Shown here: piece by piece, positions 39,879-44,899 of the stretch
How the letters are laid out: each line of letters starts with the position of its first letter
Numbering within the stretch: the first letter of the stretch is position 1
NCBI GenBank assembly: GCA_000703065.1
Contig: JNLK01000001.1
Coordinates: 3,680,001 to 3,744,000, forward strand
Length of the DNA: 64,000 nucleotides
Direction: 5' to 3'
Source: Lachnospiraceae bacterium AC2029
GTDB taxonomy: Bacteria; Bacillota; Clostridia; Lachnospirales; Lachnospiraceae
Notes under the pieces: generated by a model
The model's input: the letters and a program-made list of their open reading frames with translations, nothing else
Database searches by the model: none
What the model was told of the DNA's origin: nothing
Translations under genes and position numbers: made by a program

Positions 39879-40018
39879 ATTATCCCCTGATCATGCAACT
39901 TATCTCATTTATTGTATCACCTAAACGATATAAATGCAATTCCGGAACAGACGGAACCCGGTCAGGTTCAATTCATCCCCCCGTCTGAGAAGATGTGGTT
40001 TTCCCGCTTAAAGATGGT

Positions 40019-40046
40019 AAAAGGGACGATCCCGAAGGACCGTCCC
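40019..40046 (-). terminator. Intrinsic terminator after the 40055 gene
   Basis: In transcript sense GGGACGGTCC (40046-40037) pairs with GGATCGTCCC (40032-40023), one G-T pair, followed by TTTT. A near-identical terminator follows the paralogous gene at 42692. Confidence 0.75.
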
Positions 40047-40054
40047 GAGCGTTT

Positions 40055-41089
40055 TTAATATGAACCAGCCGCCCAACAATAAGTGGTATACAGCTTATTG
40101 CTGTCCAATAATTCCGCATAAAGTCCCCCACCAACACCAGTTTCATCCGCAGTTCTATATTCCAAATACAGGTAATACGTCTTTCCCTTCTTAAGAACCG
40201 GGTGATCCGCAGCTGTAACGAACTTGTTATAAGCACTGTTATAATATAGTTTTCCATTGGCGTAGGCTTTATCAAACTCCGTAAGCTTCACGGAAATCAG
40301 GAGTTGATACCCATTACCTGAATTATAGTATCCATCCACAAGCATAACGGATGTGAATTTCCCCGTGTATTTACAACCTGATCCGTCATTTCCGGCATAA
40401 TTTCCGGAGATTGTATTGTTAGGACCAAATACCAGTTCATCTTGTCCGGAAGGATAATCTCCATTCATATGGAAATAGTGAGAGTTTTCCTGTCCGTAGT
40501 ATATTGCTTCTGAAGTTATTTCATTAATCTTAATCGTTACCGGAAATGAACTGCTGATATTTCCGTCTTTGGAGCTGTCGTAGGCACCGCCGGCCCACTT
40601 AAAGAAATACCATTTTCCACCAATCTTCTTCCATCCGGTCTGCATAGCCCCGTCAGTGAAGTAATACCACTTTCCACCAATCTTCTTCCAGCCGGTACGC
40701 ATGAAACCTTCAGAACCGAAGTAGTACCATTTCCCGCTGATCTTCTTCCAGCCGGTACGCATAAAACCATCGCCGCCGAAATAGTACCATTTCCCGCTGA
40801 TCTTCCTCCAACCGGTCTGCATAACCCCGTTGCTACCGAAGAAATACCATTTCCCGGATACCTTCTTCCATCCGGTAACCTTTTTCCCCTTCGAGTAGAA
40901 ATACCATTTCCCGCCGGACTTCACCCATCCGTCTTTCGTAGCCGCAAGTACGACGGTATCAGAGACTTCCGTTATTCCATTTCCGGGATCCTTTACCGCA
41001 GCCTCAACTCCGGTATCCATCGGAAGCAAAGATCCTGCAACGATGGATACGGAAAGCATTATCGATAAAACTTGTTTTTTGATTCTCAT
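40055..41089 (-). CDS. Secreted cell-wall-repeat protein with novel C-terminal domain (paralog A)
   Basis: 344 aa. A signal peptide (about 1-31, ending VEAAV) precedes six or seven wall-binding repeats of the GWKKISGKWYYFGSEGFMRT type (residues ~55-180). The C-terminal ~160 residues form an unrecognised beta-rich domain beginning SFPVTIKINEI and ending AELLDSNKLYTTYCWAAGSY, shown here only as the last block LDSNKLYTTYCWA. The same domain ends the 42692 gene with high identity even at DNA level. The start follows AAGGAGTGACG, 15 bp after the upstream gene, so it is in the riboswitch-controlled transcript. Confidence 0.85.
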   Translation of the reverse strand: MRIKKQVLSIMLSVSIVAGSLLPMDTGVEAAVKDPGNGITEVSDTVVLAATKDGWVKSGGKWYFYSKGKKVTGWKKVSGKWYFFGSNGVMQTGWRKISGKWYYFGGDGFMRTGWKKISGKWYYFGSEGFMRTGWKKIGGKWYYFTDGAMQTGWKKIGGKWYFFKWAGGAYDSSKDGNISSSFPVTIKINEITSEAIYYGQENSHYFHMNGDYPSGQDELVFGPNNTISGNYAGNDGSGCKYTGKFTSVMLVDGYYNSGNGYQLLISVKLTEFDKAYANGKLYYNSAYNKFVTAADHPVLKKGKTYYLYLEYRTADETGVGGGLYAELLDSNKLYTTYCWAAGSY

Positions 41090-41104
41090 TTTACGTCACT
41101 CCTT

Positions 41105-42289
41105 CTATGGATTCATACATACACCATCCGTAGAGAATTTGTATGATTTTCCTGAAATCGTTACAGTTCCGGTAACCATGACTCCATCCTTGTTGAAGTA
41201 GTACCATTTTCCGTTCTGTTTCAGCCATCCGGTCTTCATTACTCCGGATGTATTGAAGTAATACCACTTACCGGTAGAATATAGCCAACCAACTTTTCTG
41301 ACGCCAGTAGATTTATCAAAGAAATACCAGTAACTACCTATCTGCTTCCAACCCGTAACCATATATCCGCTGCCATTGAAATAATATACCTTTCCTCCAA
41401 TGGTGGCAAAACGGCCTGCAGGCCAAGTTCCGTCATCGTATTGATACCACCATTTTCCGTTAGTCTTCTTCCAACCGGACGCAGTATCTTTTAATAAAAA
41501 ACTGTAATTTGCAGAAGTATCTCCGTCAGCAACAAGATAATATGATCCTTTATTCAAGGTCATGGTTTCTTTTAGATCGGTCCCCCCGGTAGATGAGTTT
41601 CGATAACTATAGTAACCCATCAAATATTCTCCTTCTCCATCATACAATACAAAATGTAAACGATCCTCATTACCGGACGCCGTAAGAACAATATTAGACC
41701 TCTTGTTTAACGTGAATTTGTAATAATCAGACATTTCATTTTCGGCAAAATGTCCCCTGTAGGTCTTTCCGAGTGAAATCTTATTTGCAGTCTGCCTTGT
41801 ATCATCCTGATGATATTTTCCAGATGTATCTGTTCCGTTCAAAAAGGTTTCACCTGAGCTCTTGAAACTTACGGTAAAATTATAATTACCGGTGTAATCC
41901 TCTTCCTCAACGAAGAAATAATATGTTCCTGCAATCGCTTCATAAGTAAACGTTTTATTCTTGATCTTTGTTGTATTATTCAATGGATAACATTCATCAA
42001 TATGACAAAAATCAACATCAAGAGTATCATAACAATTAACATATACATGCTTCATTTCCGACTGAAACCTAATCGTCAGTTGTCCGGAAGAAGGTAACAC
42101 GATCTTATACCAATCTTCCGTGTTTCTACTGGTTATTCTTCCATAGTATTTAGTCCCAAATGTCACTTTTGTAGCTGTCCGTTCATTATTTCCAGCAGCC
42201 TCTGCTCTCATTGGAAGGAAGACCGAGATCAATGCCAATGCCATTGCCAGCACCATTAGTATCAGTTTCTTATTCATCCTGCTTTTCAT
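41105..42289 (-). CDS. Secreted protein with two PPC-like domains and cell-wall repeats, under c-di-GMP riboswitch
   Basis: 394 aa from ATG 42289 (GGAGG 5 bp away); the ORF reaches 42355 but that start lies in the leader terminator. After a signal peptide ending RAEAAG come two beta-sandwich domains of the bacterial pre-peptidase C-terminal type (DWYKIVLPSSGQLTIRF; DYYKFTLNKRSNIVL), each ~105 residues. Five wall-binding repeats follow (GSGYMVTGWKQIGSYWYFF, TGKWYYFNTSG), ending near the C-terminus. It has no protease domain, so it is likely a surface-attached binding protein. A riboswitch and terminator directly upstream make expression depend on c-di-GMP. Confidence 0.85.
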   Translation of the reverse strand: MKSRMNKKLILMVLAMALALISVFLPMRAEAAGNNERTATKVTFGTKYYGRITSRNTEDWYKIVLPSSGQLTIRFQSEMKHVYVNCYDTLDVDFCHIDECYPLNNTTKIKNKTFTYEAIAGTYYFFVEEEDYTGNYNFTVSFKSSGETFLNGTDTSGKYHQDDTRQTANKISLGKTYRGHFAENEMSDYYKFTLNKRSNIVLTASGNEDRLHFVLYDGEGEYLMGYYSYRNSSTGGTDLKETMTLNKGSYYLVADGDTSANYSFLLKDTASGWKKTNGKWWYQYDDGTWPAGRFATIGGKVYYFNGSGYMVTGWKQIGSYWYFFDKSTGVRKVGWLYSTGKWYYFNTSGVMKTGWLKQNGKWYYFNKDGVMVTGTVTISGKSYKFSTDGVCMNP

Positions 42290-42340
42290 CCTCTCCTCCA
42301 TTTCATTCAACTGTTCTCCGATCATCCATCCATCTGCCCC

Positions 42341-42406
42341 GAAAAGAAAATCCATCCTTTGGATACGATCTATAACTCCCGATATAGACCATATCCAAAG
42401 GATGGA
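42341..42406 (-). terminator. Riboswitch expression-platform terminator
   Basis: In transcript sense TCCATCCTTTGGATA (42406-42392) pairs perfectly with TATCCAAAGGATGGA (42365-42351) over 15 bp. An inner stem TCTATA (42388-42383) pairs with TATAGA (42374-42369). The tract TTTTCTTTTC (42350-42341) follows. It lies between the aptamer and the gene start, where a switchable terminator is expected. Confidence 0.85.
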
Positions 42407-42413
42407 TAAAAAA

Positions 42414-42495
42414 GCAACTGGCTATCATACTCTATCGAGGTTAGATCCTTTAGCTTTGCGTCACAAGATTTCTCCTGTTTTGCCAAACATTCCCG
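42414..42495 (-). ncRNA. Cyclic-di-GMP-I (GEMM) riboswitch aptamer
   Basis: In transcript sense the order of conserved blocks is GGCAAAACAGGA, a GAAA tetraloop, TCTTGTGACGCAAAGC, then AAAGGATCTAA, and ATGATAGCCAGTTGC. This matches the GEMM-I pattern: GGCAAA, a GNRA-capped stem, the invariant GACGCAAAGC, the tetraloop receptor CTAA, and the closing TAGCCAG-UUGC. The invariant core lies at 42463-42454. It is followed by a strong terminator and then the PPC/wall-repeat gene. Whether ligand turns transcription on or off cannot be told by eye. Confidence 0.92.
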
Positions 42496-42654
42496 TTTTA
42501 TGTTCCGGTTTCTATACAATAAATCATTTCACATCTATACAATTCATACTATCACAGAAAGGCGTCAAATACAAGCAAGACGAGACTCGTCATTTATGTC
42601 ATTTATGCCATTTCCAGAAATAATTTCAAGTGGTCATTCCATAATGCGTCACCC
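42496..42654. other. Non-coding stretch between riboswitch and the 42692 gene terminator
   Basis: AT-rich and without a plausible gene. It should contain the promoter of the riboswitch transcript, but I find no clearly spaced -35/-10 pair. A TTGACG (42576-42571) on the - strand is a possible -35. The 9-mer GTCATTTAT is directly repeated twice near 42590-42607. Confidence 0.4.
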
Positions 42655-42684
42655 AAAAAAGGGACGGTCCCTCAGGACCGTCCC
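42655..42684 (-). terminator. Intrinsic terminator after the 42692 gene
   Basis: In transcript sense GGGACGGTCC (42684-42675) pairs perfectly with GGACCGTCCC (42670-42661) around a TGAG loop, followed by TTTTTT (42660-42655). Confidence 0.92.
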
Positions 42685-42691
42685 GAGCGTA

Positions 42692-43729
42692 TTAATATGA
42701 ACCTGCTGCCACGCAATAACTGGTATACAGCTTATTGCTGTCCAGTAATTCCGCATAACATCCGCCTCCCATACCATCAGAAAAAGCAGGTCTGTGTTCG
42801 AGATACAGGTAATATGTTTTTCCTTTCTTTAACACCGGATGATCCGCAGCTGTAACGTACTTATTATACTCACTGTTATAGTAACGGCTTCCATTGGAAT
42901 ATGCTTTTTTGAAATCCGTAAGTTTCATGGAGATTAGGAGCTTATAATCATTTTCCGACTTATAGTATCCGTCCACCAGCATAACGGATGTGAATTTCCC
43001 TGTGTATTTGCATCCATTTCCGTTTTTCCCGGCATAATTTCCGGAAATCGTATTGTTGGAACCAAACTTCAGAATGTCCTGTCCGGAGGGATAATTTCCA
43101 TTCTTATGGAAATAGTAATAATTCTCCTGTCCGTACCATATTGAACCTACAGTAAGTTTATTTATGGTGATCGTTACCGGAAATGAGTTGCTGATCTTTC
43201 CATCCTTCGATCTGTCGTAGGCACCGCCGTCCCACTTGAAGAAATACCATTTCCCACTAATCTTCTTCCAACCGGTTCTTCTATAACCGTCACTTCCGAA
43301 ATAGTACTTTTTCCCGCTGATCGTCTTCCAACCGGTACGCATAACACCATCATCACCGAAATAGTACCACTTTCCGCTGATCTTCTGCCAGCCGGTACGC
43401 ATAATACCATCACCGCCGAAATAGTACTTTTTTCCGCTGAAATTCCTCCAGCCGTTCTGCCTGACCCCGTTTTTGCCGAAGTAATACCATTTCCCGGAAA
43501 TCTTTTCCCATCCGGTAACCTTTTTGCCCTTCGAATAGTAATACCATTTTCCGTCGGACTTCACCCATCCGGATTTCGTTGCCGCAAACACGACCGTATC
43601 AGAGACTTCTGATATTCCAGTTCCGGGATCCTTTACAGCAGCCTCAACCCCGGTATTAATCGGGAGCAAAGAACCTGCAACAATGGATACAGAGAGCATT
43701 ATCGCTATAACATGTTTTTTTATCCTCAT
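42692..43729 (-). CDS. Secreted cell-wall-repeat protein with novel C-terminal domain (paralog B)
   Basis: 345 aa from ATG 43729 (AGGAGGGAT upstream); an ORF extension to 43795 has no site. The signal peptide is nearly identical to that of the 40055 protein (SIVAGSLLPINTGVEAA versus SIVAGSLLPMDTGVEAA). Seven wall-binding repeats (KWYYFGDDGVMRTGWKTISG) are followed by the same ~160-residue C-terminal domain (SFPVTITINKL to LDSNKLYTSYC). The two genes and their terminators are clear duplicates, but only the 40055 copy lies downstream of the riboswitch. This copy follows a DUF4190-like gene by 78 bp. Confidence 0.85.
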   Translation of the reverse strand: MRIKKHVIAIMLSVSIVAGSLLPINTGVEAAVKDPGTGISEVSDTVVFAATKSGWVKSDGKWYYYSKGKKVTGWEKISGKWYYFGKNGVRQNGWRNFSGKKYYFGGDGIMRTGWQKISGKWYYFGDDGVMRTGWKTISGKKYYFGSDGYRRTGWKKISGKWYFFKWDGGAYDRSKDGKISNSFPVTITINKLTVGSIWYGQENYYYFHKNGNYPSGQDILKFGSNNTISGNYAGKNGNGCKYTGKFTSVMLVDGYYKSENDYKLLISMKLTDFKKAYSNGSRYYNSEYNKYVTAADHPVLKKGKTYYLYLEHRPAFSDGMGGGCYAELLDSNKLYTSYCVAAGSY

Positions 43730-43807
43730 TTTATATCCCTCCTTGTCCAAGAAAAAATACAATGTATCTGTTCGTCCGTTCGTACAATCTCTCACTTTAC
43801 AAACACC

Positions 43808-44149
43808 CTACAGCATGCTTCGAACCTGATCCCAGAGGATTATAACCTTGGCAAATGTGATCAGTCCCAGAACAAGTCCGGCGATCGCCATTATCATTCC
43901 AAATGCTTTCGGACGTTTGCGAAATGAAATAATGGAGAGGACGATTGCCGTCAATCCCAGAACGATCGGGAAATAAGGGATCGTCAGGATATTCAGCCGG
44001 GTACAGAAAAGCAGGCTGATGATACCAACCACCATGGATACGAGTCCAAATCCAAATGCGCGTTCCTTCTGATAGACGGGTGCATTCGGTGCACAACCCT
44101 GAGTTTCGTAATAGTAAAACTGACTGTTAAACTTATCAAAATTATTCAT
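43808..44149 (-). CDS. DUF4190-like small membrane protein (twin 2)
   Basis: 113 aa from ATG 44149, which follows AAAGGAGGAAC; the ORF extends to 44269 without another site. An N-terminal ~35-residue polar region rich in Asn, Tyr and Gln precedes two membrane helices (LVSMVVGIISLLFC and IVLGLTAIVLSIIS), then a third segment AIAGLVLGLITFAKV. The GLVLG-type helices fit DUF4190. The function of this family is unknown. It is a tandem duplicate of the 44300-44794 gene, including the 51-bp upstream segment. Confidence 0.75.
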   Translation of the reverse strand: MNNFDKFNSQFYYYETQGCAPNAPVYQKERAFGFGLVSMVVGIISLLFCTRLNILTIPYFPIVLGLTAIVLSIISFRKRPKAFGMIMAIAGLVLGLITFAKVIILWDQVRSML

Positions 44150-44189
44150 AACTGTTCCTCCTTTGTTTTGTGTTTGTTTTGTTATCTTG

Positions 44190-44240
44190 GATGATCTTAT
44201 TAAAACACAAAACAAAGAAGGAAAAATTAGGGGGGTGGGA
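44190..44240 (-). repeat. 51-bp duplicated upstream region, copy 2
   Basis: Identical over ~51 bp to 44846-44896. In transcript sense it starts with a C-tract (CCCACCCCCC), then an AT-rich stretch (TTTTAATAAG) and ends at GATCATC about 41 bp before the start codon. Probably the promoter or operator of the twin gene; no standard -35 is evident. Confidence 0.7.
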
Positions 44241-44243
44241 TTT

Positions 44244-44276
44244 AAAAAAACGGGCGGCGCCAGAAGCACCGCCCGT
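44244..44276 (-). terminator. Intrinsic terminator after twin 1
   Basis: In transcript sense ACGGGCGGTGC (44276-44266) pairs with GCGCCGCCCGT (44260-44250) around TTCTG, followed by TTTTTTT. It separates the two DUF4190-like genes, so each needs its own promoter. Confidence 0.88.
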
Positions 44277-44299
44277 ATTCTTGGTACGATATATCTTTT

Positions 44300-44794
44300 C
44301 TAAAACATACTTTCAATCTGACCCCAGAGGAGCACGACTCTGGCAAAAGTGATCAGTCCCAGAACAAGTCCGGCGATCGCCATTCCTCTTCCTCTCGCAT
44401 GTCTGCGGATCGGAGAAATGGAGAAAACGACTGCGAGCAGCGCCATAACGATCAGGAAATAAGGGATCATCAGCATATTCAGCCCGGTAGAGCAAAGCAG
44501 ACCGATGATACCAACGACCATGGATGCGACTGCCAGTCCGGATACCCTTTCCCGCTGAAAGGCGTTTGAGTTAGGTACATAACCCTGTGAGAATGAATTC
44601 GGTACGTAGCCCTGCGCGGATGTGTACGGTACGTAACCCTGTGCGGGTGTACTCTGTACGTAAGTCTGAGCAGGTGTACTCTGTACGTAAGTCTGAGCAG
44701 GTGTGCTCTGTGCGTATGCCTGAACAGGTTTGCTTGATACGCAACTGGGCGCCTGGAAAAAGTAAGACTGAGCATTATTATTAGAATTATTCAT
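44300..44794 (-). CDS. DUF4190-like membrane protein with YVQSTPAQ-type repeats (twin 1)
   Basis: 164 aa from ATG 44794 (AAAGGAGGAAAGG). Residues ~24-82 are six or seven imperfect 9-10-residue repeats of the QTYVQSTPA / QGYVPNSFS kind. Such low-complexity Tyr/Gln/Pro tails often precede the helices in DUF4190 proteins. The helices are LAVASMVVGIIGLLC, YFLIVMALLAVVFSI and MAIAGLVLGLITFA. It is the longer member of the twin pair; the repeat block is absent from the 43808-44149 protein. Confidence 0.75.
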   Translation of the reverse strand: MNNSNNNAQSYFFQAPSCVSSKPVQAYAQSTPAQTYVQSTPAQTYVQSTPAQGYVPYTSAQGYVPNSFSQGYVPNSNAFQRERVSGLAVASMVVGIIGLLCSTGLNMLMIPYFLIVMALLAVVFSISPIRRHARGRGMAIAGLVLGLITFARVVLLWGQIESMF

Positions 44795-44845
44795 AACCTT
44801 TCCTCCTTTTGTTCTGTATTTGTCTGTTTTCGTTTTGTTATCTTT

Positions 44846-44896
44846 GATGATCTTATTAAAACACAAAACAAAGAAGGAAAAATTAGGGGGGTGGGA
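44846..44896 (-). repeat. 51-bp duplicated upstream region, copy 1
   Basis: The matching copy of 44190-44240, placed about 50 bp before the twin 1 start codon and directly after the rsfS stop at 44900. It contains the same CCCACCCCCC tract. Confidence 0.7.
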
Positions 44897-44899
44897 ATT

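What the first reader, a model, noticed from the sequence alone, without database searches (positions are those of the whole stretch)
42341..42495. c-di-GMP-I riboswitch controlling secreted wall-binding proteins
The conserved GEMM-I blocks (GGCAAA, GACGCAAAGC, GGATCTAA, ATGATAGCCAG) are all present in order on the - strand, then a perfect 15-bp terminator stem, then a secreted protein with PPC-like domains and wall repeats and, 15 bp later, a second wall-repeat protein. Riboswitch control of surface proteins is known in Clostridioides difficile; this gene combination is new to me.
Basis: partly seen in the sequence, partly recalled or inferred. Interest (0 to 1): 0.8.

Follow-up and report, generated by a model that had tools for sequence, protein, structure and literature searches.

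The report
c-di-GMP riboswitch before wall-binding secreted proteins
An RNA sensor for the bacterial messenger c-di-GMP sits in front of two genes for secreted, wall-binding proteins in what is probably a gut bacterium, most likely switching them off when the messenger is abundant; the sensor is of a well-known kind, and only its target genes and the details of its switch look new.

Summary
Rfam's c-di-GMP-I model matches 42494-42410 on the minus strand, full length, at 65.1 bits (cut-off 35). Directly behind it lies a 25-bp hairpin (16 outer pairs perfect, not 15) with a U-rich tail, then a secreted protein with PPC-like domains and choline-binding-type wall repeats, and 15 bp later a second wall-repeat protein. 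The base that tunes ligand choice is G, as expected for c-di-GMP. The genome has ten such aptamers and many c-di-GMP enzyme domains. Aptamer and terminator share no strand, and an aptamer segment can pair with the hairpin apex, so I read it as a transcriptional OFF switch, as described for C. difficile class I. That alternative pairing is only modestly better than chance: 65 of 1000 shuffles equal it. One further PPC protein in this genome and one in another species of the genus also follow a c-di-GMP-I aptamer (3 of 19 loci); 0 of 10 loci from eight genomes outside the genus do. The cassette is absent at this spot in the three relatives checked. New member of a known kind; modest interest.

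The parts
42546..42574 (-). possible promoter: TTGTAT, 17 nt, extended -10 TGATAGTAT (weak -35)
   Evidence: read by eye; NOT among the sites listed by the consensus scan
42410..42494 (-). c-di-GMP-I (GEMM-I) aptamer, G at the Vc2 G20 equivalent
   Evidence: Rfam RF01051, 65.1 bits, E 1.8e-10; base
42433..42447 (-). P3 segment GATCTAACCTCGATA, proposed antiterminator strand in the aptamer
   Evidence: pairs with the hairpin apex in folds of transcripts ending at 42375-42365; duplex -14.2 kcal/mol
42367..42384 (-). hairpin apex TATCGGGAGTTATAGATC, proposed partner of the P3 segment
42350..42407 (-). 25-bp terminator hairpin (outer 16 pairs perfect)
   Evidence: stem motif TCCTTTGG-N10-40-CCAAAGGA occurs at two places in the genome, both directly behind a c-di-GMP-I aptamer
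42341..42349 (-). U-rich tail TTTCTTTTC
41105..42289 (-). gene 1: secreted-looking protein, PPC-like domains (one by Pfam just under cut-off, a second from the model) plus choline-binding-type wall repeats, 394 aa
40055..41089 (-). gene 2: secreted-looking choline-binding-repeat protein, 344 aa, likely same transcript
   Evidence: 15-bp gap
40023..40046 (-). terminator-like hairpin GGGACGGTCC-TTCG-GGATCGTCCC then TTTT: likely end of the transcript
   Evidence: read by eye; not listed by the scan

Best explanation
A c-di-GMP-I riboswitch that works as a transcriptional OFF switch. When c-di-GMP is bound, the aptamer (including its P3 helix) holds its fold and the long hairpin right behind it forms and stops transcription. 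When c-di-GMP is low, the P3 strand GAUCUAACCUCGAUA can pair with the hairpin's apex as it emerges, delaying the terminator, and the polymerase reads on into the two wall-protein genes. Both proteins would then be made at low c-di-GMP. Shown: the aptamer, hairpin, gene order and repeat content. Inferred: ligand binding, the switch direction, the antiterminator and co-transcription of the two genes.
For: Full-length Rfam match. G at the Vc2 G20 equivalent, described as a selectivity factor rather than a hard filter (PMC9262584, passages). 40 GGDEF and 17 EAL hits in the genome. Aptamer and terminator share no strand and coexist in the full-length fold, the layout PMC9262584 describes for the OFF switch Cd1, in contrast to the ON switch pilM (passages). 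Folds of transcripts ending at 42375-42365 pair P3 with the apex; the cost of keeping the aptamer folded rises from 3.6 to 7.6 kcal/mol there and is 3.6 again at 42358-42340. The P3-apex duplex (-14.2) is stronger with the window's own aptamer than with any of 69 other c-di-GMP-I aptamers. C. difficile class I riboswitches are described as OFF switches (PMC11477304, passages).
Against: 65 of 1000 dinucleotide shuffles of the apex equal the P3-apex pairing. With three other choices of segment, 133, 138 and 143 of 1000 shuffles and 1, 2 and 6 of 69 other aptamers do as well; I quote the best of four choices. The sister switch with the same stem motif has no comparable pairing to its own apex (-7.5 against -16.5 kcal/mol), and its aptamer pairs with the window's apex at -13.2, though elsewhere in the aptamer. 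The aptamer-keeping cost also rises, to 6.6-7.6, once sequence beyond 42337 is included, with no terminator at stake. The finished terminator is far more stable than the antiterminator, so switching would have to be decided during transcription. No ligand or expression data.
Confidence: 0.66

Rival explanations
1. ON switch: c-di-GMP binding prevents the terminator, so the wall proteins are made at high c-di-GMP, as two adhesins are under class II control in C. difficile.
For: Aptamers of this fold can be ON switches (pilM; PMC9262584, passages). Wall-bound, possibly adhesive proteins fit a sessile state; CD2831 and CD3246 are made at high c-di-GMP (PMC11477304, passages). In the genus at least two riboswitches (L072, L080) have terminator-like hairpins that start inside the aptamer's 3' end.
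Against: Here the terminator's 5' arm (from 42407) starts after the aptamer match ends (42410), and the full-length fold keeps both.
Confidence: 0.18
2. A real aptamer in front of an almost constitutive terminator: the 25-bp hairpin forms whatever the ligand, and the switch is weak or decayed.
For: The hairpin wins in the full-length folds; the antiterminator is only modestly better than shuffles.
Against: The aptamer is complete and the best-scoring of the ten in this genome. The stem motif occurs at two places in the genome and both follow a c-di-GMP-I aptamer, with none for the reversed pattern: a shared working part, or a recent copy.
Confidence: 0.13
3. The aptamer prefers another cyclic dinucleotide (such as cyclic AMP-GMP).
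For: Rare variants of this class sense cyclic AMP-GMP (PMC7266159, passages); 4 of 10 aptamers in this genome carry A at the selectivity position.
Against: This aptamer carries G there, and c-di-GMP enzyme domains abound.
Confidence: 0.03

Closest known systems
c-di-GMP-I riboswitch Cd1 upstream of the flagellar flgB operon, Clostridioides difficile
   Same: Same aptamer class; terminator separate from the aptamer, with an antiterminator that unfolds the aptamer (PMC9262584, passages); OFF logic, proposed here
   Different: In Cd1 the antiterminator takes the 3' end of the binding pocket (G147-C87, C148-G86); here it would take P3. Target genes differ.
Class I c-di-GMP riboswitches of C. difficile before surface or secreted proteins (CD2797 calcium-binding adhesion protein, ppep-1 metalloprotease)
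   Same: Class I switch before a surface or secreted protein gene (PMC11477304, passages)
   Different: As listed there, the targets are not described as PPC plus choline-binding-repeat proteins
c-di-GMP-I aptamer at 3190756-3190837 of the same genome (L006/L012)
   Same: Precedes a PPC-like protein 42% identical to gene 1 over the PPC part
   Different: Different expression platform: the hairpin found there includes the ribosome-binding site
c-di-GMP-I aptamer at 44652-44737 of the same genome (L004/L013)
   Same: TCCTTTGG...CCAAAGGA hairpin directly behind the aptamer
   Different: Different apex without the same pairing; downstream genes are a small membrane protein and what look like zinc-ribbon, vWA, PP2C and kinase genes (by eye)

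Membership tests
c-di-GMP-I (GEMM-I) riboswitch, RF01051 | Covariance-model match over the curated cut-off, full length | tested here: met
   65.1 bits against 35, model 1-87 of 87
c-di-GMP-I (GEMM-I) riboswitch, RF01051 | G at the position equivalent to Vc2 G20 / Cd1 G11 (selectivity for c-di-GMP) | tested here: met
   G at Rfam position 11; role from PMC9262584 passages
c-di-GMP-I (GEMM-I) riboswitch, RF01051 | c-di-GMP turnover enzymes in the same genome | tested here: met
   40 GGDEF and 17 EAL domain hits
c-di-GMP-I (GEMM-I) riboswitch, RF01051 | Binds c-di-GMP | not testable with these tools
   needs in-line probing or ITC
Transcriptional OFF switch (Cd1-like) | Intrinsic terminator between aptamer and gene, compatible with the folded aptamer | tested here: met
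   25-bp hairpin plus U-rich tail; both elements in the full-length fold
Transcriptional OFF switch (Cd1-like) | Alternative pairing of aptamer with terminator strands | tested here: inconclusive
   P3-apex -14.2 kcal/mol: 65 of 1000 shuffles and 0 of 69 other aptamers as good, best of four segment choices
PPC domain (PF04151) | Curated Pfam cut-off | tested here: not met
   24.6 bits against 25.9, E 4.8e-5; hence 'PPC-like'
PPC domain (PF04151) | PPC / collagen-binding-domain fold | tested here: inconclusive
   AlphaFold2 model, mean pLDDT 86.6; Foldseek lists ColG tandem collagen-binding domains s3as3b (5iku) at rank 7, E 8.3e-12, but TM 0.24/0.39, rmsd 15.6, 16% identity
Choline-binding-repeat wall protein (PF01473/PF19127) | Repeats over the curated cut-off | tested here: met
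   genes 1 and 2; gene 1 model matches LytA and CbpF choline-binding structures

The most novel reading that the evidence does not exclude
A lineage-specific cassette in which a c-di-GMP-I OFF switch with a P3-apex antiterminator and a 25-bp terminator represses a wall-anchored protein with collagen-binding-type domains; this protein family has come under c-di-GMP-I control more than once within one Lachnospiraceae genus, through different expression platforms.
Probability: 0.35. Interest if true: 0.42.

Novelty: new member of a known kind. Interest (0 to 1): 0.3.

Why it matters
It extends direct c-di-GMP control of surface proteins, described in detail for C. difficile, to a Lachnospiraceae genus that is probably commensal, and gives a compact locus on which switch direction could be tested. 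The genus survey suggests that these bacteria use this riboswitch class for many surface proteins, pilins and small regulators.

Tried and rejected
1) Feedback loop through the neighbouring HD-domain protein (39878-38691; HD_5): thought unlikely, because a terminator-like hairpin (40046-40023) follows gene 2, and in two relatives this gene stands directly beside RsfS without the cassette. Its motif reads GYL, not GYP (by eye; motif recalled), so activity is uncertain.

2) 5'-arm antiterminator CTAAAGGAT:ATCCTTTGG: 143 of 1000 shuffles and 6 of 69 other aptamers as good, with a slightly different arm, 4 of 59 others. Kept only as a possible helper.

3) The P3-apex pairing in the sister switch (L004): not seen.

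4) Conservation of the hairpin in the genus: the stem motif was found in 3 of 61 genomes: this one (two places), G036 and G046 (one each); the reversed control pattern was found in G024, G038 and G058 (one each), so single finds are at chance level. The G036 and G046 loci have no Rfam match over threshold.

5) PPC homologues under c-di-GMP-I outside the genus: 9 of 299 family genomes had a match, own included; no c-di-GMP-I in 10 of the 14 loci from the other eight genomes. The four loci left out are second matches that, by place and open-frame length, lie in proteins already covered.

6) Close relatives: RF01051 was found in 5 of 6 genomes with HisD 76-92% identical, but none of the matches in G359 or G362 lies on the contig that holds HisD.

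7) Naming the species: the first named-genome scan, with the PPC query, confirmed no relative; a HisD scan gives uncultured Lachnospiraceae (92%, RUG isolates; that RUG means rumen is recalled), and G004's contig length equals that of Lachnospiraceae bacterium AC2031. Exact species not determined.

Full report
WHAT IS THERE. Right behind it, 42407-42350, is a 25-bp hairpin whose outer 16 pairs are perfect, followed by TTTCTTTTC. The gene behind starts best at 42289: 394 aa, signal-peptide-like start, PPC-like and choline-binding-type repeats; 15 bp later comes a second repeat protein. PPC is a single Pfam stretch just short of the cut-off (24.6 against 25.9 bits). An AlphaFold2 model (mean pLDDT 86.6, 10 sequences) shows two beta-sandwich blocks; Foldseek lists the choline-binding proteins CbpF and LytA among the best and the tandem collagen-binding domains of ColG (5iku) at rank 7 with E 8.3e-12 but a poor superposition (TM 0.24/0.39, rmsd 15.6). 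The same list holds repeat regions of clostridial toxins; I take that as the shared repeat fold only. Collagen binding is untested.

GENOME CONTEXT. The genome (3.86 Mb, one contig) has ten c-di-GMP-I matches, the window's scoring highest, 40 GGDEF and 17 EAL domain hits. In the genus, 53 of 61 genomes (own included) have a c-di-GMP-I match at E <= 0.001, 52 over the cut-off. HisD similarity places the organism in the Lachnospiraceae, near uncultured RUG genomes.

RECURRENCE WITH PPC PROTEINS. The PPC part of gene 1 finds 19 matches in 13 of 61 genus genomes. Counting the window, 3 of 19 loci carry a c-di-GMP-I aptamer: the window, a paralogue in the same genome and one in G012. In one of the 19 (G048:C65) only about 330 bases precede the match. 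In this genome 2 of 4 PPC matches follow such an aptamer. In a family-wide draw 9 of 299 genomes (own included) had a match at E <= 1e-8; 10 of the 14 loci from the other eight genomes were scanned and none showed such an aptamer, the other four being second matches in proteins already covered. So the link is confined, as far as seen, to this genus.

THE CASSETTE. In two relatives (HisD 90 and 92% identical) the HD-domain gene sits directly beside RsfS; in the window about 5.0 kb (39879-44899) with three repeat-protein genes, the riboswitch and two DUF4190-like genes lies between. In G004 no HD-gene match was found in the stretch and a neighbouring small gene adjoins RsfS. So the cassette is missing at this place in 3 of 3 relatives checked: gained here or lost there; I cannot tell which.

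MECHANISM. Aptamer and terminator share no strand and coexist in the full-length fold, as PMC9262584 describes for the OFF switch Cd1 and unlike the ON switch pilM (passages). In folds of growing transcripts P3 (42447-42433) pairs with the hairpin apex (42384-42367) when the 3' end is at 42375-42365; the cost of keeping the aptamer folded rises from 3.6 to 7.6 kcal/mol there, is 3.6 again at 42358-42340, and rises once more to 6.6-7.6 beyond 42337. Polymerase footprint, kinetics and tertiary contacts are not modelled. As controls, 65 of 1000 dinucleotide shuffles of the apex pair as well, and 0 of 69 other aptamers do; three other segment choices gave 133-143 of 1000 and 1, 2 and 6 of 69. That is suggestive, not proof. 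The sister switch at 44652, with the same stem motif, does not show the same pairing. The stem motif TCCTTTGG-N10-40-CCAAAGGA occurs at two places in the genome, both directly behind a c-di-GMP-I aptamer, and its reversed control at none; in the other 60 genus genomes motif and control are equally rare, two against three places. I take OFF as the likely direction, also because C. difficile class I riboswitches are described as OFF switches (PMC11477304, passages).

SURVEY OF THE GENUS. I took 70 aptamers: the 10 of this genome and 60 chosen from the higher-scoring matches (itself a capped list), several left out, some of them on short contigs, so not a random sample. 68 of 70 had a downstream open frame by my rule, 33 of them with a signal- or membrane-like start by a crude hydrophobicity rule; two tandem aptamers share one gene. 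Of the 68, 60 were scanned against Pfam (left out: one duplicate, one very long protein, six doubtful frames): HTH_17 in 12, choline-binding repeats in 8, pilin N_methyl in 5, transglutaminase core in 4, PPC in 3 (E <= 0.001). A terminator-like hairpin within 75 nt was found for 60 of 70. Of these, 11 carry GCGTC in the 5' arm, the complement of the aptamer's GACGC core (in one, L121, the core is GGCGC), against a mean of 0.5 and a maximum of 4 in 200 base shuffles; at the next base 8 are T-A, 2 C-G and 1 a C-A mismatch. That fits OFF logic in these genus members, but the window's own hairpin is not of this type.

LITERATURE. Six searches of open-licence PMC papers showed, in the listings returned (capped), no paper whose title or abstract start reports a c-di-GMP-I riboswitch before a PPC plus choline-binding-repeat protein. 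I read passages, not whole papers, of PMC9262584, PMC11477304, PMC3649979, PMC12694794 and PMC7266159. Control of surface proteins by c-di-GMP riboswitches is established in C. difficile.

VERDICT. A genuine member of a well-known riboswitch class in front of what appears to be a new pair of targets; switch direction inferred. New member of a known kind, interest about 0.3.

Noticed in passing
own genome 2286037-2286113, 3431840-3431916, 2832764-2832847, 3583520-3583595 (L007-L010): 4 of 10 aptamers in this genome (16 of 70 surveyed) have A instead of G at the position that tunes choice between cyclic dinucleotides; a possibly altered ligand in a Lachnospiraceae genus (role of the position).
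   Followed up: partly
L008 and L009 (own 2286037, 3431840): Two near-identical, divergent aptamers with AGAAAA and GACTCAAAGC in place of GGCAAA and GACGCAAAGC; L008 is followed by a GAGCA-type repeat tract.
   Followed up: no
genus survey, e.g. L081, L082, L104, L125 and own 3186718: Terminator 5' arms carrying GCGTC, complementary to the aptamer core GACGC, with a matching next base in 10 of 11 cases: a recurrent, probably OFF-type expression platform.
   Followed up: partly
L012:2007-2409 (own 3186406 and 3186718): Two c-di-GMP-I aptamers in tandem before a 1166-aa secreted-looking protein; CHAP-like by eye.
   Followed up: no
L013 (own 44652-44737, minus strand): c-di-GMP-I aptamer before a small membrane protein and genes that look like zinc-ribbon, vWA, PP2C and kinase proteins (by eye).
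   Followed up: no
L017, L069, L075, L084, L086, L087, L089, L094, L100, L101, L118, L124: Recurrent small helix-turn-helix protein as first gene behind c-di-GMP-I aptamers (12 of 60 proteins match HTH_17; loci picked out by eye), in some loci followed by SPFH-like proteins (by eye).
   Followed up: no
L107, L110, L113, L114, L122: Type IV pilin-like genes (N_methyl in 5 of 60; loci by eye) behind c-di-GMP-I aptamers; their terminator 5' arms can pair with the aptamer, which would suggest OFF control, unlike the class II ON control of pili in C. difficile.
   Followed up: partly
window 40023-40046 and 42661-42684: Near-identical terminator hairpins after genes 2 and 3, whose proteins look alike by eye: a likely duplication on both sides of gene 1.
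   Followed up: no
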